A stretch of 64,000 nucleotides of DNA from Deltaproteobacteria bacterium. GTDB lineage: Bacteria > Myxococcota_C > UBA6777. Both the position numbers and the translations under genes were made by a program. The stretch covers positions 1 through 64,000 of the forward strand of contig PCBK01000130.1 in assembly GCA_002731275.1 (NCBI GenBank). Reading direction: 5' to 3'. Positions 1-12,292 of the stretch are shown piece by piece. Within the stretch, counting starts at the first letter, position 1; every line of letters starts with the position of its first letter. Under the pieces are notes generated by a model. That model was given only the letters and a program-made list of their open reading frames with translations, ran no database searches and had not been told where the DNA came from.

Positions 1-138
1 ACAGTGCAAGGGATAGGATGGAAGAACTGTCACCTCATTCAAGCAGTGGATGGCTACACTTACAAAAATCGAATGGGCGTTTCCTCCCCCCATCTAAAGA
101 AGGGGGTCTCCACGCCTCAGCTGAACGAAAGGTTTTAA
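1..138 (+). CDS. iscB: IscB nuclease, C-terminal end only (cut by window edge)
   Basis: Frame 1 is open from the first base and ends in TAA at 136-138. The peptide aligns with the last ~50 residues of the complete IscB at 8042-9430: TVQGIGWKNC here against TTQGIAAKYC there, then DGYTYKNRMGVSS against DGYNYNNRMGVSS. It is therefore the tail of a second, separate IscB gene whose body lies outside the window. As in the other copy, the coding sequence runs through the right-end hairpin and stops just before the next gene, here 4 nt before the ATG at 143. Whether the missing part is intact cannot be judged. Confidence 0.85.
   Translation, partial: TVQGIGWKNCHLIQAVDGYTYKNRMGVSSPHLKKGVSTPQLNERF
75..116 (+). 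repeat. IscB-element right-end hairpin, copy 1
   Basis: The arms GGCGT (76-80) and ACGCC (112-116) pair, and inside them a C-run faces a G-run (TCCTCCCCCC against GGGGG). The sequence nearly matches 9361-9401. Right ends of IS200/IS605-type elements typically carry such a subterminal hairpin. An AACGAAAGG motif follows at about 124-132 and the next start codon is at 143. Confidence 0.75.
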
Positions 139-142
139 TTCG

Positions 143-4404: not shown

Positions 4405-6060
4405 GTGAATTCAAGAACGCCAGCGTCACCTACCACGCTTGCTCCGGCTTTCCTCAGGGCTGCATTGCACGTCCCGACCGGTGACATTCATCTGGAATGT
4501 CTGTCAGGTGATCTGCAATGGCTCTGCGGTATGAGCACCGATGCGCTCAACCTCACGGCGGGGATATGGGGGAAACTGATCGATGATTACGACGCATTTT
4601 GTCTGACCCTCGTTAAGCTGACAAAAGACCAACCACTGACACAAACACTCTACTGGAACCACACAGACGGACACAAAGTCGAAGCCTGTCATACATTTGT
4701 TTACGCCCCCATGCAGGGCTCTGACGCCTTCAAATACATCGATATCTTCGTGAGATTCGTAGGGCTTGAGCTGCTCGACTACATCAAAGCGCTCGAAAGC
4801 TCCTACGAGACACGCTCGAAAGACTGTGGTGCATTGAGCTTCCCAAAAGTGTGGGAGGAGCCGGGTTTTTATGAGAGGGTTGTGGGTTCGGTCAACGATG
4901 GTATTCTCGTCAACGATCCGAATGGTCAAATCCTATACATGAATGAAAATCTTGCAAAACTTTTGGGTTACTCTCCAGGGGAGCTTTTGGGGAAACACCT
5001 GTTCGATGTCATGGACGAAGAAGGCATACAGCTCACCAAAAAACGACTCTCTGAGCGTATCAGTGGCACAGAGGAGGTCTTCGACTTTCGTTTTGTCCAC
5101 CGCAACGGTGCTCATGTCTGGACACGCGTCTCTGCCAAACCCTTGGTCGATGATGATGAACGTCATATGGGTTCACTCGTGTCCATCTCCGACATCTCCG
5201 CGCGAAAAAAAGCAGAGCAAGACCTCCAAGTGCTCCTCAACGAGCTTGAGCAACGTGTACAGGAAAGGACCAAGCTCCTGACACGCGCCAACTCCGAGCT
5301 GAAGAAGGAAGTCGAGGAGCGCAAGAGCGCAGAGAAAAGAGCTATCCTCGCCAGCCGCGCAAAGAGTCAGTTCCTGGCAAACATGAGCCACGAATTACGC
5401 ACCCCTCTCAACGCGATCATCGGGTACTCAGAGATTTTGGAAGAAGAGATGCAGTCGGCAGGTGTCGATGACTTCCAACAAGACATCGAATGTATCCACT
5501 CATCTGCACAACATTTGTTACAGTTGATCAGCAGCATACTCGACCTTTCAAACATCGAAGCAGGGAGGATGGAGCTTCAGTCCGAAGAGATCTATCTCGA
5601 TGAGTTCCTAAGCGAGCTGCGTATGATGATGGAAGACATGCTACAGCAAAGCGAGCTTCTCTTTATCGTCGAACAACAGCTCGACACGATGAGCTTTATT
5701 GCGGATCGAGGAAAGCTACGGCAGATCATTTTCAACTTCTTGAGCAACGCGGTCAAGTTCACACTGACAGGTAGTATTTGCTTGCGGGTCCGACACGACG
5801 TAGACCAAGCCCACATCATCTTCGACGTCGAAGACACAGGAATAGGCATCCATGAAGACGATATTGATGCGCTCTTCTCTGCATTTTGGCAGGCTGATGG
5901 TTCAGCGACGAGGCGCTTTGAAGGTGCGGGGTTGGGACTCGCCATTGCACAAGAATACACTCGCTTGATGGGTGGTCGTATTTCAGTCAAGAGCAAGTAT
6001 GGGGAAGGCTCAACTTTTTCGGTGGCCATCCCGACATGGCATACTTTGGATACCACGTAA
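4405..6060 (+). CDS. Cytosolic PAS-domain sensor histidine kinase
   Basis: After an unassigned N-terminal ~155 residues comes a PAS domain (NDGILVNDPNGQILYMNENLAKLLGY), a coiled-coil linker (EQRVQERTKLLTRANSELKKE), a HisKA dimerisation helix with the phospho-acceptor in MSHELRTPLN (His ~329), and a HATPase domain with N-box NFLSNAVKFT, G1 DTGIGI and G2 GAGLGLAIA. No membrane segment or receiver domain is present, so it is a soluble kinase whose response regulator is encoded elsewhere. GTG at 4405 is preferred because TGAGGT lies 8 nt upstream; a TTG at 4390 is also in frame. The downstream hydrolase gene uses a Shine-Dalgarno overlapping this gene's stop codon, suggesting co-transcription. 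Confidence 0.9.
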   Translation: MNSRTPASPTTLAPAFLRAALHVPTGDIHLECLSGDLQWLCGMSTDALNLTAGIWGKLIDDYDAFCLTLVKLTKDQPLTQTLYWNHTDGHKVEACHTFVYAPMQGSDAFKYIDIFVRFVGLELLDYIKALESSYETRSKDCGALSFPKVWEEPGFYERVVGSVNDGILVNDPNGQILYMNENLAKLLGYSPGELLGKHLFDVMDEEGIQLTKKRLSERISGTEEVFDFRFVHRNGAHVWTRVSAKPLVDDDERHMGSLVSISDISARKKAEQDLQVLLNELEQRVQERTKLLTRANSELKKEVEERKSAEKRAILASRAKSQFLANMSHELRTPLNAIIGYSEILEEEMQSAGVDDFQQDIECIHSSAQHLLQLISSILDLSNIEAGRMELQSEEIYLDEFLSELRMMMEDMLQQSELLFIVEQQLDTMSFIADRGKLRQIIFNFLSNAVKFTLTGSICLRVRHDVDQAHIIFDVEDTGIGIHEDDIDALFSAFWQADGSATRRFEGAGLGLAIAQEYTRLMGGRISVKSKYGEGSTFSVAIPTWHTLDTT

Positions 6061-6071
6061 AGGAGGAACGC

Positions 6072-6845
6072 ATGGGTGTTTGCGTCACAGATGACCAGGT
6101 ACAGGTGGCTTACAAATTGTTTGGCCAAGGTGAGCGTTATGTCGTTCTCGTGCATGGATGGATGGTCTCAGGTGAGGTTTTTTCTTCCCTACTCCCATAT
6201 CTACGTACAGAGGTGACTTGGATCGTTCCCGATTTGAGAGGCACAGGCGACTCTGACAAACCGAAGAGCGGGTACACACTCGCACGCCATGCAAAAGACG
6301 TAATGTCTGTCGTGGATCACCTTGGCGTCGGGAACTTTGCACTTGTAGGCCACAGTATGGGCGGACAAATTGCCCAACAAATCGCCGCAACACACTCCAC
6401 ACGAGTCAACGCGCTCGCCTTACTCAACAGTGTTCCAGCTTCGGGCATCCCCTTACCAGAAGAAGCGACGCAATTATTCAGACACTCCGCAGGTTCTAAA
6501 GAGAGCCAAACGGCGATCCTGAACATGGCTTGCAAAACGCTCACAGATGAAGCGCTTGCGTCGCTCCTTGCAGACGCAGGAAGTATTTCGGGTGCTTGTA
6601 TTGAAGAGAATTTCGATGCTTGGACAGCAGGTGGTTTTGCAGATATCATCGGAAACATTCACGCGCCGACGTTGGTGTTGGCGACAGATGATCCCTTCCT
6701 ACCACCTGACTTTCTCACACAGGCCGTCGTCGACCCGATCCCCAACGCCTCGCTCGTCCATCTTCCAGGACCAGGACATTACCCTCAAGTCGAAGCCCCC
6801 GCACAAACAGCAGCCATCCTTGATGCTTTCCTTATCGGTCGATAG
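6072..6845 (+). CDS. Alpha/beta-hydrolase
   Basis: This is a 257-residue alpha/beta-hydrolase: oxyanion-side HGW motif (VVLVHGWMVSGEVF), nucleophile elbow GHSMGG, acid region LATDDPF and a C-terminal GPGHYPQ carrying the catalytic His. Its ~260 residues without a signal peptide fit cytosolic esterase/lactonase-type members; the substrate is unknown. The ATG at 6072 is chosen because AAAGGAGG (6059-6066) sits at ideal distance and overlaps the kinase stop codon. The gene therefore probably forms an operon with the sensor kinase. Confidence 0.85.
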   Translation: MGVCVTDDQVQVAYKLFGQGERYVVLVHGWMVSGEVFSSLLPYLRTEVTWIVPDLRGTGDSDKPKSGYTLARHAKDVMSVVDHLGVGNFALVGHSMGGQIAQQIAATHSTRVNALALLNSVPASGIPLPEEATQLFRHSAGSKESQTAILNMACKTLTDEALASLLADAGSISGACIEENFDAWTAGGFADIIGNIHAPTLVLATDDPFLPPDFLTQAVVDPIPNASLVHLPGPGHYPQVEAPAQTAAILDAFLIGR

Positions 6846-6846
6846 C

Positions 6847-7518
6847 CTACCAACGTGTGTGTAGCGCTAATCCACCCATCTTGTTGCCATCACGCGTCGC
6901 GTTGAACCACGGCAAGACATCAAAGCGTCTTCGGTAGCGGCGTCTGTAGCGTCGTCGTCGAAAACCTCGCCTCGATCGAAAGAACATATTCACGAGTCCG
7001 AGCGCCAAAGCTGCGCCAGCGATCCCCCATATCGTGACCGAGAACACTGGACCATAGTCGCTGATAAAGAGTGGCAAGAAGCCCCAAAACATCGAGAGAC
7101 CACCTGCGACTGTACCAATGACGCCCCACGCAAAACGATTGCGTCCAGTGAACAGAGAAAACAAGTTCCCACCAATCGAAGTCACATCAGCGATCAACAA
7201 TGGGATACCAATGATCCAAAAAGGGACCTTCAGATCGTCTGCGGAGCTCTGCATTTGCACGAGCACACCGAGTGTCGACACGTGGGAGAGCATTCCTTTG
7301 GGAGCAGCCTCTGTCTTGAATTGTGTCGAGGGTGCCTTGAGCGCGAGTACAGTGTCGGACGACTGCGCAAGAGGGGTGAGTTGTTGAGAAAAAGGTGTTC
7401 CAAAAGACAAAGGCGTCGCGTTTGCAGTGGAGACAAGACAAAGCAAACATCCAACAACCAACGAAACCATTCGCAACGACCGAGTCACACGAGCATCAAA
7501 TGGTATATATCTTTCCAT
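6847..7518 (-). CDS. Hypothetical inner-membrane protein with Arg-rich tail
   Basis: I do not recognise the family. The 223-residue protein has an N-terminal hydrophobic segment (SLRMVSLVVGCLLCLVSTANA) that looks like a signal peptide, about three further membrane segments (PFWIIGIPLLIADVTS; FAWGVIGTVAGGLSMFWGFLPLFI; VFSVTIWGIAGAALALGLVNMFF), then an Arg/Tyr cluster (RSRRGFRRRRYRRRYRRR) that should face the cytosol. AAGGAG stands 9 nt before the ATG at 7518; a TTG directly in front is less likely. It converges with the hydrolase gene, one base apart. Confidence 0.6.
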   Translation of the reverse strand: MERYIPFDARVTRSLRMVSLVVGCLLCLVSTANATPLSFGTPFSQQLTPLAQSSDTVLALKAPSTQFKTEAAPKGMLSHVSTLGVLVQMQSSADDLKVPFWIIGIPLLIADVTSIGGNLFSLFTGRNRFAWGVIGTVAGGLSMFWGFLPLFISDYGPVFSVTIWGIAGAALALGLVNMFFRSRRGFRRRRYRRRYRRRFDVLPWFNATRDGNKMGGLALHTRW

Positions 7519-7640
7519 CAAATATACTCCTTACGAGACAGTAAGACGGGCTTCTTTCTAAAGATGCACCTTACCACATCGTCATGCAAGATTCCACACA
7601 CACAAATAACCCCAGGCACTCGACCCGCTCACAAAGCAAG

Positions 7641-7669
7641 TTGCATCGACGACGCTGTCTCTGTATATA
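7641..7669 (+). promoter_or_regulatory. Weak candidate promoter for the omegaRNA/IscB transcript
   Basis: TTGCAT (7641-7646) and TATATA (7664-7669) are 17 nt apart. Transcription would begin around 7677, about 20 nt before the predicted guide. Before the IscB insertion this could have been the promoter of the haem-binding gene. The match to consensus is modest. Confidence 0.3.
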
Positions 7670-7697
7670 TGCAAGCAGTGACACCATCTGCTAAACT

Positions 7698-8040
7698 GTA
7701 AACGAAAGGAGTTGGCAGTTTCCACAAGGTTCACGTAACCCTCGACATAACTGCCTGAGAGCCGGTCAAGAACCTCCCCCTAAAGGGAGAGGCTTGAAAG
7801 AGCCTCTATGTTGACCAGCCTTTGTGAAAACACTCGAAAGGAGGCATTCAAACTACGTTAGGAGCGAATACATAGGCACTCCCGGATGCTTCTCCAGTCC
7901 TGGGCTCTGCGGCATGGTTGTTAAATGTTTTTTGGAGGTAGAAACTGTGTGACCTGCATCAAAACCGCTCTGTAACATTGGCGAGGAGACCATCACTGGA
8001 CAAGAGCTCCGGATCGACTCCCAGAACACGAGGTAACTCG
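7698..8040 (+). ncRNA. Putative omegaRNA of the IscB system (guide ~7698-7713, scaffold from 7714)
   Basis: IscB nucleases use an omegaRNA encoded directly upstream, with a ~16-nt guide at its 5' end. The ~330 nt before iscB are non-coding and strongly structured. GGCAGTT (7714-7720) pairs with AACTGCC (7749-7755), enclosing GGTT/AACC (7728-7731/7737-7740). GGTCAA (7764-7769) pairs with TTGACC (7811-7816), enclosing a hairpin of CAAG..CTTG and CCTCCCC..GGGAGAGG (7767-7796). Structure starting sharply at 7714 suggests the scaffold boundary, leaving 7698-7713 (GTAAACGAAAGGAGTT) as the guide. The exact ends and 3' processing site are inferred, not visible. Confidence 0.65.
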
Positions 8041-8041
8041 A

Positions 8042-9430
8042 TTGATACAAAATACCTTACAAGACCCAAAAGCCAGGCCTGCTCAAAACAGAGTCCTGGT
8101 TCTCGACAAGAACAAACAGCCTCTGATGCCCTGCCACCCGGCCAGAGCCAGAGAACTCCTCAGAAAAGGACGTGCTGCCGTCTACAGACGATTTCCGTTC
8201 ACGATCATCATCAAAGACCGCGAGGGTGGAGCCACACAACCGACAGTCCTCAAGTTCGACCCTGGCTCCAAAAAGACCGGCATCGCCGTCGTTGCTGACT
8301 TTCAACGTGGGAAGCGTTGCATCTTCGCCGCTGAACTCGAGCATCGTGGAGAGCAGATCAAAAAAGCGCTCGAAAAGCGACGAAACATCCGTCGTTCTCG
8401 CAGAAGTCGAAAGACCCGCTATCGCAAAGCACGCTTCGAGAACCGAAGAAAACCCAAGGGGTGGTTGGCTCCGTCACTACAAAGCAGAGTGGATAACATC
8501 GAGTCCTGGACACGGAAGTTTCGGGCATTGATACCGGTCTCAAGCCTTTCGGTAGAGAACGTTCGTTTTGATACGCACAAACTCGTCAATCCCGAGGTTC
8601 AGGGGGTCGAATACCAACAGGGAACGCTCTTTGGCTACCAGGTCAGGGAATATCTCCTCGAAAAGTGGGGTCGAAAGTGCGCGTACTGCGGCAAACAGAA
8701 CGTACCTTTGCAGGTGGAGCACATGACCCCCAAAAGCAGGGGAGGCTCCAACAGAGTTGACAACTTAACTCTGGCCTGCGAGATGTGCAATCAGAAAAAA
8801 GGAAGCAAAACAGCCGGCGGGTTCGGATTCCCAGGACTTTGCAAAAAGGCGGACAGGCCCTTGAGAGCGGTGGCAGTTGTGAATTCGACCCGACCAGCGA
8901 TTCTTGAGGTGCTCAAAAGTACGGGTCTTTCGGTGGAGACAGGCAGCGGTGGACAGACGAAATTCAACCGAAGTCAACAGGGTTATGCGAAAGAGCATTG
9001 GATTGATGCAATGTGTGTTGGTGACAGTGGAAGACATGTCTTCGTCGAAAAGTGCCACGAAGTTCTGGAGATAAAGGCGATGGGAAGGGGTACTCGACAA
9101 ATGTGTCGGGTGGATCGTTTTGGATTCCCGAGAACGGGAGCAAAAAAGAAAGAAAAAAGAGTGGATGGATTTCAGACGGGAGACATCGTCAAGGCAATCG
9201 TGACAAAGGGAAAAAAGAAAGGAACGTATGTGGGTCGAGTGGCAGTCCGAAGCAGCGGGAATTTCAACATCAAAGAAGGAAAAAAGACGACACAAGGCAT
9301 CGCAGCAAAATACTGCAAAATGGTACAAAAAATAGATGGATACAATTACAACAATCGCATGGGCGTTTCCTCCCCCCTCTTAAGAAGGGGGTCTCCACGC
9401 CTTGGCAAAATGGAGGCTTTTGATCGATGA
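8042..9430 (+). CDS. iscB: IscB, OMEGA-type RNA-guided DNA nuclease
   Basis: IscB proteins are RNA-guided dsDNA endonucleases of IS200/IS605-type elements and the family from which Cas9 arose. All landmarks are present: the PLMP motif at residues 27-30 followed by CHPARARELL; RuvC-I FDPGSKKTG with Asp73; an Arg-rich bridge helix (about 112-137); RuvC-II LSVENV with Glu172; an HNH insert with zinc ligands C213/C216/C246/C249 and catalytic VEH (His227); and RuvC-III EHWIDAM with His319 and Asp322. The C-terminal ~150 residues correspond to the TAM-interaction region. The start is uncertain: TTG at 8042 is used, but relatives begin close to VLVLDKNK (residue 18). No TnpA transposase is nearby. 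The last codons run through the right-end hairpin, and the stop (TGA 9428-9430) overlaps the next ATG. Confidence 0.93.
   Translation: MIQNTLQDPKARPAQNRVLVLDKNKQPLMPCHPARARELLRKGRAAVYRRFPFTIIIKDREGGATQPTVLKFDPGSKKTGIAVVADFQRGKRCIFAAELEHRGEQIKKALEKRRNIRRSRRSRKTRYRKARFENRRKPKGWLAPSLQSRVDNIESWTRKFRALIPVSSLSVENVRFDTHKLVNPEVQGVEYQQGTLFGYQVREYLLEKWGRKCAYCGKQNVPLQVEHMTPKSRGGSNRVDNLTLACEMCNQKKGSKTAGGFGFPGLCKKADRPLRAVAVVNSTRPAILEVLKSTGLSVETGSGGQTKFNRSQQGYAKEHWIDAMCVGDSGRHVFVEKCHEVLEIKAMGRGTRQMCRVDRFGFPRTGAKKKEKRVDGFQTGDIVKAIVTKGKKKGTYVGRVAVRSSGNFNIKEGKKTTQGIAAKYCKMVQKIDGYNYNNRMGVSSPLLRRGSPRLGKMEAFDR
9361..9401 (+). repeat. IscB-element right-end hairpin, copy 2
   Basis: Arms GGCGT (9362-9366) and ACGCC (9397-9401) pair; inside, CCTCCCCCCTCTT faces AAGAAGGGGG. 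It lies inside the iscB coding sequence. TGGAGG follows at 9411-9416 and the haem-binding gene starts at 9427, 25 nt after the hairpin. Confidence 0.75.
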
Positions 9431-9975
9431 AAAACATTCTCAAAATTATCATGTACATCTTGTTGTCCCTTCTTGGTATCTTCGTATTGATCCAGCTCGT
9501 CCCAGTCAAACGGACCAATCCGCCTGTGACCTCAGAGATCAAACTCCCCCCTGAGATGGAAAAAATCGTCAAGAAAGCCTGTTATGATTGCCACTCTAAC
9601 GAGACAAAGTGGCCCTGGTACAGCTATATCGCGCCCGTCTCTTGGACTGTCGCACATGACGTCAATGAGGGCCGAAGAGAGTTGAACTTCTCCGAGTGGG
9701 GGAAATACTCGGAGAGAAGACGTAGAAAGAAGATCGAAGAGATCTGGGAAGAAGTCGAAGAGAGAAAAATGCCCATGCCTCTCTACATCGTCACACACCC
9801 CGAAGCGCTCCTCACCAAAAAAGAACGCCTCGTCATCAAAAAATGGACCCACTCCCAACTCAATCCCCCCAAAAAACGTGACGCGAAGGTCGACAAGGCG
9901 AAGACAGACACCAAACCAAAAGAGACCCCCAAAGAAGAAAACGTCAAAAAAGAAAACACCAAAGCTACAAAGTGA
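9427..9975 (+). CDS. Membrane-anchored haem-binding domain protein (single CxxCH cytochrome)
   Basis: One N-terminal membrane anchor (IIMYILLSLLGIFVLIQLVPV) is followed by a Haem_bd-type domain: CYDCHSNET carries one CxxCH haem-attachment site, followed by the family's typical WPWYSYIAPVSW. The C-terminus is a Lys/Glu-rich tail (about residues 145-182). The protein would face the periplasm as a c-type cytochrome; the redox partner is unknown. Its ATG overlaps the iscB stop (ATGA). GGAGG at 9412-9416, inside the IscB element, is the only Shine-Dalgarno, so the gene now seems to be read from the element. The original leader may be the sequence at about 7641-7713, left of the element. Confidence 0.85.
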   Translation: MKNILKIIMYILLSLLGIFVLIQLVPVKRTNPPVTSEIKLPPEMEKIVKKACYDCHSNETKWPWYSYIAPVSWTVAHDVNEGRRELNFSEWGKYSERRRRKKIEEIWEEVEERKMPMPLYIVTHPEALLTKKERLVIKKWTHSQLNPPKKRDAKVDKAKTDTKPKETPKEENVKKENTKATK

Positions 9976-10054
9976 CACCATGTGTGACCAAAAAGTCAGA
10001 TACAAACGCTGTCATACGTAGCACTTGATGAGAAGACCACCAGACCTTCGATGC

Positions 10055-11134
10055 TTACTTCTCTTCTTTCGGCGTTCTGACCCGTGTAGGTGAGAACGCA
10101 GAGGGAACATCGACCTGCTCTCCACAGATCGCACGCGCCGCGTCCTCTGTCGCAGCAAACGACGTCGACATACCAAACCCACCAAATGCCGCGAGCCAAA
10201 ACAATCCGGGAAAATCAGGATCCTCTCCCCATATCGGCGATTGATCGTCCGTGTACGTACGGAAACAGTGCCATGAACGAGATAACCCCAACGAATCAGC
10301 GACATCAGGCAGCGAGTCGAGTAACTTCACTGCAATCTCCTCAGCAATCTCAGGATGAGGTTCAAACACATCAGGATCAGACGCCGGAATACGTTCACAG
10401 ACAGAGACGAGGCGTGTCTCTGGATCCCACAAACGCATGTACCAGCCCGCCTCCTCCTCCCAGTAAAAACCACAATCACTCGATGGCATAAAATCTTCTC
10501 GCCAGCCCGACGTCACAAACAAATGCCTCGCATATGGCGAAGCCTCCACCTGCATCAACGGATCAGCGTTCAAATACTCGTTTAACCAAGCCCCACCAGC
10601 GTTGATGACCCAAGATGCATGGTGCTTGGTCCCATCATCAGTCGTCACACACCAGCGCTGATCATCCTGCCGGACGTCGACAACCCGCGTTCGAAATTGA
10701 AAGGATACGTGGGTACGATCGACGGCCTGCATCAACTGCTGAACATATCCACCAGAATCCAACAGACCATCAGTCGGCGTATACACACATGGCGTTTGCT
10801 TTTCTTTTCCCTGGTATCGCGTCGTCAACTGACGCAGCTCAAAGATGTCGGGATGATGCGCAGGTGGTGTTCGCCCCACGACGATCGAACCCGTCTCGCG
10901 AAAGCAGACCTCTTTGATATCCTGAGGCCACGAACGAATGGAACGATACGTCCACTCTGTCAGTTGCGGGTTTCGATACAGTTGGCGAATCATACCTGCG
11001 TTCTTCCCCGAAGAGTGAACTGCTGGCATCATCTCCTTCTCCAACACAAGCACACGCTTGCCTCGCTGCCCCAAATGATAAGCGACAGAAACACCGAGCA
11101 CCCCAGCCCCAATGACGATCACATCTTGTTGCAT
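10055..11134 (-). CDS. FAD-dependent oxidoreductase, DAO (D-amino-acid/glycine oxidase) family
   Basis: The N-terminal dinucleotide fold is textbook: DVIVIGAGVLGVSVAYHLGQRGKRVLVLEKE, with GxGxxG and a terminal acidic residue. It is followed by VHSSGKNAGMIRQ and, near the C-terminus, LFWLAAFGGFGMSTSFAATEDAARAI, the second FAD-contact region of DAO-type enzymes. The middle holds INAGGAWLNEYL. The family oxidises amine substrates such as glycine, sarcosine or D-amino acids; the exact substrate cannot be read from the sequence. The ATG at 11134 is used because the fold begins four residues later; an ATG at 11152 would add only six residues. It stands alone, with DUF2330 upstream on the same strand. 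Confidence 0.85.
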   Translation of the reverse strand: MQQDVIVIGAGVLGVSVAYHLGQRGKRVLVLEKEMMPAVHSSGKNAGMIRQLYRNPQLTEWTYRSIRSWPQDIKEVCFRETGSIVVGRTPPAHHPDIFELRQLTTRYQGKEKQTPCVYTPTDGLLDSGGYVQQLMQAVDRTHVSFQFRTRVVDVRQDDQRWCVTTDDGTKHHASWVINAGGAWLNEYLNADPLMQVEASPYARHLFVTSGWREDFMPSSDCGFYWEEEAGWYMRLWDPETRLVSVCERIPASDPDVFEPHPEIAEEIAVKLLDSLPDVADSLGLSRSWHCFRTYTDDQSPIWGEDPDFPGLFWLAAFGGFGMSTSFAATEDAARAICGEQVDVPSAFSPTRVRTPKEEK

Positions 11135-11248
11135 AACAATCTCCATGCACATAACACACCCTCAAGGGGCTACATTCGACAACAGAGGACGTTGTACACG
11201 GTCAACACCCAATGTCAAGCCTACAAAACCGCCCCTCGTCGTAGCCCA

Positions 11249-12292
11249 TCAATCTTTTTTCATCCGGCGCACACCAAACCACAAACCAACAAACAACAGC
11301 AAGACAGGGAGCAATTCAATCGGTATGGGTATCGTTGTGTATTTGATATCGATGATCGGAGGTGGCGCTTTGACGACGTTCTTGACGGAAGAGAAAAAGA
11401 CCTCAGCGATGCCCGGTCGAGGAGAGGAGCGATCGACAAAGGTGGTCAACCACAACGACCCCAAAGAAGACGACCACTTTTTGGGCAACAATGACAACTT
11501 CTTCCACGCCTGTTCGTCGACCTCGTTGCTGTATCCTTCAACGGCGGGCCACGGCTTCTTTCCGTCCCCAAGTGTCCCCTTCATCCGGGTCTCACTCAGC
11601 ACATATACGCGCAGTGAACGAGGTGTTTTCCCACTGACCTTTTGCATAGAAGCGGGCTCTCTGTAAGGATAAAATGGACGCTTGGTCTTAAATGACATCC
11701 TCACAGCCGATGTCGACGGAGCCTGCGCGGCTGCTTTGTTTTCAATCTTGAAGGCCGTTATCTTCCAGCCCATTTTGATATACGGCGCCAACCATGTTTG
11801 CAGCTCAGGGTTGAGCATGTAACCGTTTTTGTTGATCCAATCTGCCATCGCCTTTGCGTCTGTTGCCTCAAGTACAACGGCGTTATAGCCTGCAATCTTT
11901 TTGCGCACGAGCACTTTGACGGCGCTACGTGGGACCGCTTTGAGATCTCCTCGACTGAAGAGCCACATTCCCCACTGGAGCTTGACCTTTTCCTGCACCT
12001 TTCGCTTTGGTTTGGTCAGCGCGTGTAGCTCCTGGAAAACGACATCAGGCACTTCCGCAAGCTCAGGGACTGTAGGTGTTGGGACCAAAAAACCGAAGTT
12101 CATCGCGCCCGTCTCAAAAGACGCACGTCTGATAAAGTGTTCTACACCGCGCTTTTGATCCCAGATGATAATCGCCTGCTCTTTCTCAATCTTGATCTGA
12201 TACCCAGGAGGTGGGACCGGCGCACATGCCAACGCTAGCGACGGCGCAAACAAAGAGATACACAACGAAACCAACCATACCAACCGTGTCAT
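11249..12292 (-). CDS. DUF2330-domain secreted or membrane-anchored protein
   Basis: The mature protein starts right after a signal peptide (LVWLVSLCISLFAPSLALA) with CAPVPPPGY and continues EKEQAIIIWDQKRGVEHFIRRA and FGFLVPTPTVPEL, the typical opening of DUF2330, a family of unknown function. A C-terminal hydrophobic helix (IPIPIELLPVLLLFVGLWFGV) followed by RRMKKD forms a membrane anchor, so the bulk of the protein lies in the periplasm. ATG at 12292 is chosen because AAGGAG lies 8 nt upstream and it gives a normal signal peptide; an ATG at 12313 also has a GGAGAG. Confidence 0.8.
   Translation of the reverse strand: MTRLVWLVSLCISLFAPSLALACAPVPPPGYQIKIEKEQAIIIWDQKRGVEHFIRRASFETGAMNFGFLVPTPTVPELAEVPDVVFQELHALTKPKRKVQEKVKLQWGMWLFSRGDLKAVPRSAVKVLVRKKIAGYNAVVLEATDAKAMADWINKNGYMLNPELQTWLAPYIKMGWKITAFKIENKAAAQAPSTSAVRMSFKTKRPFYPYREPASMQKVSGKTPRSLRVYVLSETRMKGTLGDGKKPWPAVEGYSNEVDEQAWKKLSLLPKKWSSSLGSLWLTTFVDRSSPRPGIAEVFFSSVKNVVKAPPPIIDIKYTTIPIPIELLPVLLLFVGLWFGVRRMKKD

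What the first reader, a model, noticed from the sequence alone, without database searches (positions are those of the whole stretch)
7698..9430. Complete IscB-omegaRNA locus with all nuclease residues intact and no transposase
Seen: PLMP motif, three RuvC parts (Asp73, Glu172, His319/Asp322), HNH with zinc cysteines and His227, and a ~330-nt structured non-coding segment directly upstream whose first stem starts at 7714. Known: IscB proteins are RNA-guided nucleases of IS200/IS605-type elements and relatives of Cas9. Inference: the locus could be an active, TnpA-independent OMEGA system, possibly domesticated. It is the clearest RNA-guided system in the window.
Basis: partly seen in the sequence, partly recalled or inferred. 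Interest (0 to 1): 0.82.

Follow-up and report, generated by a model that had tools for sequence, protein, structure and literature searches.

The report
IscB element inserted at start codon
This is a real mobile element carrying an RNA-guided DNA-cutting enzyme (IscB, a relative of Cas9's ancestors); the enzyme is of a known kind, but in this genome 11 of the 12 copies with a readable right end sit exactly in front of the start codon of a host gene, which may explain how such elements borrow host transcription to make their guide RNA.

Summary
Window 8042-9430 encodes a full-length IscB (NCBIfam guided_IscB, 434 bits) with all nuclease residues at the stated positions. A HEARO/omegaRNA (RF02033, 102 bits, gathering 83) lies upstream at 7765-7996. 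No transposase is beside it.

Comparison with near-identical copies elsewhere in the genome fixes the element at 7765-9426.

"TnpA-independent, possibly domesticated" is not supported: the genome holds at least 12 copies, two differ by 3 of 1,645 bases, and IscB is under purifying selection (dN/dS about 0.07).

The unexpected result is the target. All 12 right ends abut ATGA, and in 11 that ATG opens a host ORF of 179-794 aa (chance about 4e-8). One copy splits the conserved fliQ-fliR junction exactly at the fliR start, if an evident assembly swap is undone. The guide would thus be sequence just 5' of a host gene, and the presumed TAM its start codon. Enrichment also appears in cyanobacterial elements and weakly in Ktedonobacter.

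Use of host transcription for the guide and donation of a ribosome-binding site are inferences, not shown.

The parts
7765..9426 (+). whole mobile IscB element (1662 bp), left end GTCAAG..., right end ...GATCG
   Evidence: divergence points of near-identical copies C13/C35 and of other copies; HEARO model position 1 falls on 7765
7741..7764 (+). predicted omegaRNA guide (16-24 nt of host DNA, CTCGACATAACTGCCTGAGAGCCG), native sequence 5' of the downstream gene
   Evidence: immediately 5' of the HEARO scaffold; the 16-mer 7749-7764 has no other match with 0-1 mismatch in the held assembly; guide role inferred from characterised IscB/HEARO
7765..7996 (+). HEARO omegaRNA scaffold
   Evidence: RF02033, 102.2 bits, full length
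8030..8033 (+). Shine-Dalgarno-like GAGG, 8 nt before the IscB TTG start
   Evidence: read from sequence
8042..9430 (+). iscB, 462 aa: PLMP, split RuvC, HNH, C-terminal TAM-interacting region; the stop TGA is supplied by the host ATGA
9362..9401 (+). right-end imperfect palindrome GGCGT..CTCCCCCCTCTTAAGAAGGGGG..ACGCC; most sister copies have the IscB stop TGA here, the window copy has TTA
9412..9416 (+). GGAGG near the element's right terminus, 10 nt before the host ATG (Shine-Dalgarno-like)
   Evidence: duplex energy with anti-SD -9.3 kcal/mol
9427..9430 (+). ATGA: junction motif (presumed target and TAM); host start codon ATG overlapping IscB stop TGA
9427..9975 (+). host gene, haem-binding-domain protein (PF14376), 182 aa, whose start codon is the insertion point
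1..142 (+). right end of a second IscB element cut by the contig end; its ATGA junction at 143 opens a 437-aa ORF

Best explanation
The locus is a non-autonomous mobile IscB/HEARO (OMEGA) element of the IS200/IS605-related ISC kind, 7765-9426, inserted exactly before the start codon of a haem-binding-domain gene. Shown here: element ends, intact IscB and omegaRNA scaffold, a multi-copy family with a recent copy pair, junction ATGA in 12/12 copies, and that ATG being a host gene start in 11/12. Inferred: (i) the junction ATGA is both insertion target and TAM; (ii) the omegaRNA is read through from host DNA, so its guide is the 16-24 nt of host sequence before 7765; (iii) when the element is excised or an empty allele arrives, IscB cuts the re-formed site [guide sequence + ATGA], and repair from an occupied copy restores the element; (iv) because the guide lies outside the left end, it must be transcribed by host transcription, which a position directly before a gene start, in the gene's direction, secures; (v) in this copy the element's own end (GGAGG, ATGA stop/start overlap) may keep the host gene translated. 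A transposase acting in trans is presumed but not identified.
For: IscB identity and residues. HEARO RNA. C13/C35 copies differ at 3 of 1,645 positions and have two sets of flanks. 12/12 right junctions ATGA; 11/12 open ORFs of 179-794 aa, several with lipoprotein or membrane signal starts. Null: 14% of ATGA sites open an ORF >=179 aa (P 4e-9); of ATGA sites that are gene starts or intergenic, 17% are gene starts (P 4e-8). Joined flanks put an in-frame stop 2-12 codons before the ATG. fliP-fliQ flank one element copy and fliR-flhB the other, so one copy sits exactly at the fliR start. Orthologues of the window's downstream gene start at the equivalent codon (GTGAAA in G002 and G004, ATGAAA in G001). 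IscB dN/dS about 0.07 between copies. Published IsrB TAMs NTGA, NTG, NTGG (PMC9581776). TnpB precedent for TAM = transposase target and post-excision cleavage (PMC11870625). Guide 16-mer has no other match with 0-1 mismatch.
Against: No transposase with matching ends found; the examined resident IS605 elements have different termini. No expression or cleavage data. No sigma-70 consensus promoter upstream, though the host's promoter type is unknown. Right-end Shine-Dalgarno is strong in this copy and most cyanobacterial elements but not above shuffles in sister copies (AAAGG) and absent in Ktedonobacter. In other hosts only about half of ATG junctions are gene starts (9/18 Ktedonobacter ATGG, P 0.016; 10/16 cyanobacterial ATGA, P 2e-6) and GTGA junctions mostly are not (2/16).
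Confidence: 0.8

Rival explanations
1. Domesticated, immobile IscB with a host function (RNA-guided regulation or defence).
For: No transposase nearby; this copy differs by 14% in protein from its nearest paralogue; purifying selection on IscB.
Against: Many dispersed copies with conserved ends and junction motif; recent copy pair; purifying selection is shared by the copies compared and is expected of a mobile nuclease; the guide has no other match with 0-1 mismatch in the genome to act on; nuclease residues intact, unlike the nuclease-dead TnpB-derived TldR regulators (recalled).
Confidence: 0.07
2. The start-codon pattern is only survivorship: insertion is random at ATGA, copies inside genes were lost, and those before genes remain. 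The element is otherwise as in the best explanation.
For: Insertions inside genes would be purged; in other hosts many copies sit at non-start RTGR sites near genes.
Against: Even among ATGA sites that would not interrupt a gene only 17% are gene starts, against 11/12 observed (P 4e-8). Some extra preference or positive selection seems needed; which one is not resolved.
Confidence: 0.25
3. Decayed, inactive remnant: the lost stop codon in the end palindrome and a lower HEARO score mark a dying copy.
For: HEARO 102 bits against 120-142 in four sister copies; stop TGA changed to TTA in the end palindrome.
Against: All catalytic residues and the full HEARO model are present; dN/dS 0.07 between this copy and C13.
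Confidence: 0.12

Closest known systems
IscB / HEARO OMEGA nucleases (RF02033, NF040563; OgeuIscB, Ktedonobacter IscB, MG35)
   Same: PLMP-RuvC-HNH protein, HEARO RNA directly upstream, usually no TnpA beside it (PMC9755519)
   Different: Host phylum with only five genomes held; start-codon insertion in 11/12 copies; this copy's ORF ends in the host's ATGA
IsrB nickases (PMC9581776)
   Same: Related omegaRNA; TAMs NTGA, NTG, NTGG match the junction motifs seen here
   Different: IsrB lacks the HNH domain, which is intact here
IS200/IS605 TnpA-TnpB elements
   Same: Flanking target motif doubling as TAM, end palindromes, nuclease thought to restore the excised element (PMC11870625)
   Different: TnpB guides lie 3' of the scaffold, IscB guides 5' and outside the left end (recalled); resident IS605 ends differ

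Membership tests
IscB (RNA-guided endonuclease) | NCBIfam guided_IscB equivalog above cut-off | tested here: met
   433.6 bits against 175
IscB (RNA-guided endonuclease) | PLMP, split RuvC and HNH catalytic residues | tested here: met
   D73, E172, H227, H319, D322 and two CxxC pairs
IscB (RNA-guided endonuclease) | RNA-guided cleavage activity | not testable with these tools
   needs biochemistry
HEARO omegaRNA | RF02033 above gathering score directly upstream of the ORF | tested here: met
   102.2 against 83 bits, 7765-7996
IS200/IS605-related ISC mobile element | dispersed copies with shared precise ends and a fixed flanking motif | tested here: met
IS200/IS605-related ISC mobile element | Y1 TnpA that recognises these ends | tested here: inconclusive
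   none in the element; four Y1 genes elsewhere; three examined IS605 elements have different ends
CRISPR-Cas9 | repeat-spacer array nearby | tested here: not met
   no regularly spaced direct repeats in 5000-12000
Domesticated (immobile) RNA-guided factor | single conserved site, no recent movement | tested here: not met
   multi-copy family with a recent pair; conservation of this one site in close strains could not be tested

The most novel reading that the evidence does not exclude
IscB/HEARO elements are start-codon parasites: their TAM (NTG plus A or G) coincides with bacterial start codons, so the element lands directly before a gene in the gene's direction, uses host transcription to make a guide that must lie outside its own end, and in some lineages carries a terminal ribosome-binding site so the host gene is still translated. 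The guide is then the sequence just 5' of the host gene, and the cut site is its empty allele.
Probability: 0.45. Interest if true: 0.68.

Novelty: new member of a known kind. Interest (0 to 1): 0.5.

Why it matters
The nuclease itself is of a known kind. The target pattern offers a concrete answer to how an element whose guide RNA begins outside its own left end gets that RNA transcribed at every new site, and why such insertions are tolerated. It is directly testable by transcript mapping and transposition assays, and would give a reason why IsrB TAMs and the junction motifs seen here read as start codons.

Tried and rejected
Domestication: rejected on multi-copy and recent-pair evidence. 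Stem at 7714 as part of the omegaRNA: rejected, outside the element and unremarkable fold. Resident IS605 TnpA as mobiliser: not supported by end similarity. Self-targeting regulation: guide has no other match with 0-1 mismatch (looser hits no more frequent than the reversed-pattern control). Consensus promoter scan gave nothing. Plain folding of the scaffold is not significant (z -1.29); the family model is the evidence. My first reading that most left flanks are divergent promoter regions was cut back: 3 of 5 are; one is the fliQ-fliR gap, and one follows a co-directional 405-aa ORF without a family match. The C13 and C35 flanks as assembled are probably swapped across the near-identical element, so only the window and C50 copies have assured flank pairs. 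A general Shine-Dalgarno at the right end: not general. Kapitonov 2016, Weinberg 2009, Altae-Tran 2021 and Meers 2023 are not in the library, so whether they note the start-codon pattern could not be checked; from memory, Weinberg et al. report ATGA/GTGA at the insertion site. Residues differing between NTGA and NTGG elements are confounded by ancestry.

Full report
Observation. The ORF at 8042-9430 encodes a 462-aa IscB. Rfam's HEARO model matches 7765-7996 over its full length at 102.2 bits, gathering score 83. No other Rfam family reaches its threshold in the window.

Boundaries. The genome (10.75 Mb, 200 contigs) contains 12 places with an IscB right-end match, five of them full-length, and seven HEARO hits. 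The copies on C13 and C35 are nearly identical and then diverge on both sides. Their left divergence point corresponds to window 7764/7765, where the HEARO model also begins; the right one lies at the ATGA, window 9427. A few shared bases at either edge could shift this by one to four bases. The element is taken as 7765-9426, 1,662 bp.

Mobility. The C13/C35 elements differ at 3 of 1,645 positions, so the family moved recently. IscB genes of the copies differ with dN/dS of 0.06-0.08 where dS is not saturated. No transposase lies in the element or window. Four Y1 genes exist elsewhere; three belong to IS605-type TnpA-TnpB elements, two of them 99.45% identical, but their ends differ from this element's. 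A transposase acting in trans is the simplest reading, unproven. Published surveys also find IscB/HEARO rarely beside TnpA (PMC9755519).

Target. All 12 right ends in the genome are followed by ATGA. They were found by protein similarity, not by searching for ATGA, so the count is not circular. In 11 the ATG opens an ORF of 179-794 aa, several beginning with lipoprotein or membrane signal sequences; the twelfth opens 7 codons. Among ATGA sites in the same DNA 14% open an ORF of at least 179 aa (P 4e-9). Of ATGA sites that are gene starts or intergenic, 17% are gene starts (P 4e-8; gene starts there come from a simple ORF rule, not a gene caller).

Empty sites. Joining the flanks of the window copy and the C50 copy leaves an in-frame stop 2 and 12 codons before the ATG. 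For the window copy, orthologues of the downstream haem-binding-domain gene in relatives start at the equivalent codon, GTGAAA in G002 and G004 and ATGAAA in G001, with no element in front. For C13 and C35 the assembly has probably swapped flanks across the near-identical element: the C13 left flank carries fliP and fliQ, and the C35 right flank starts with fliR (Bac_export_1, 4.8e-54) followed by an flhB-like ORF. Paired that way, the flanks restore the conserved fliP-fliQ-fliR order, with AGAGG just before the fliR ATG. Every pairing keeps an in-frame stop 7-8 codons upstream. So the insertion points are native start codons.

Other hosts. In two same-family genomes nearly all junctions are ATGA, and 10 of 17 listed open an ORF of 80 aa or more, two of these being the same orthologous site. 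In Ktedonobacter racemifer the main group abuts ATGG, 9 of 18 opening such an ORF against 24% expected (P 0.016). In cyanobacteria 10 of 16 ATGA junctions do, against 12% expected (P 2e-6). GTGA junctions in the first mixed set do so in 2 of 16. Junctions in these other hosts were placed by eye from aligned ends and the elements are related, so these figures are indicative. Measured IsrB TAMs are NTGA, NTG and NTGG (PMC9581776), which matches these junctions.

How it probably works. Characterised IscB RNAs carry the guide 5' of the scaffold (PMC9755519), and here the scaffold begins at the element's left end, so the guide is host DNA, 7741-7764. Its last 16 nt have no other match with 0 or 1 mismatch in the assembly. 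The empty site is that sequence followed by ATGA, which an NTGA-reading IscB should cut; by analogy with TnpB this restores the element after excision (PMC11870625). Because the guide is outside the element, it must be transcribed from outside. In three of the five copies with a left flank the neighbour is divergent, so the flank is probably a promoter region; one copy sits inside the fliQ-fliR junction of an operon; one follows a co-directional ORF. All are placed to be read in the element's direction by host transcription. No transcript was examined, and a sigma-70 scan found no consensus promoter before the window copy.

Effect on the host gene. In the window copy GGAGG lies 10 nt before the host ATG (anti-SD duplex -9.3 kcal/mol), and IscB's stop TGA overlaps the ATG. 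Most sister copies stop earlier, in the end palindrome (TGA where the window has TTA), so the overlap is particular to this copy. Most cyanobacterial elements end in GAGG/GGAGG better than shuffles, but the sister copies here (AAAGG) and Ktedonobacter elements do not. Donation of a ribosome-binding site is plausible for some elements, not general, and the GGAGG could instead serve transposase recognition.

Verdict. Ordinary in kind: a new member of the IscB/HEARO family in a little-sampled phylum. Domestication is not supported. Start-codon insertion is statistically firm in this genome; its cause (preference, need for host transcription, or selection) is open. I found no mention of it in the papers I could read, but the four most likely to discuss it were not available.

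Noticed in passing
window 1-142: Right end of a second IscB element at the contig edge, also abutting an ATGA that opens a 437-aa ORF.
   Followed up: yes
L056 and L057 (G000 C13 and C35): Probable assembly swap across a near-identical IscB element: fliP-fliQ end one contig side and fliR-flhB begin the other.
   Followed up: partly
L156, L157, L158 (G000 C11, C23, C42): Complete IS605-type TnpA-TnpB elements, two of them 99.45% identical; ends unlike the IscB element's.
   Followed up: partly
L067 (G000 C84:44767-44892): Solo, internally deleted HEARO relic (30.7 bits) without an IscB ORF.
   Followed up: partly
IscB residues 404-409 and aligned positions in other loci: A short C-terminal segment (SSGNFN against HRPSFR) differs cleanly between elements abutting NTGA and NTGG; possibly fourth-TAM-base specificity, confounded by ancestry.
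   Followed up: partly
genome G000: The host's phylum has only five genomes in the held set, all one family; several contigs end inside IscB right ends, a sign of repeats that broke the assembly.
   Followed up: no
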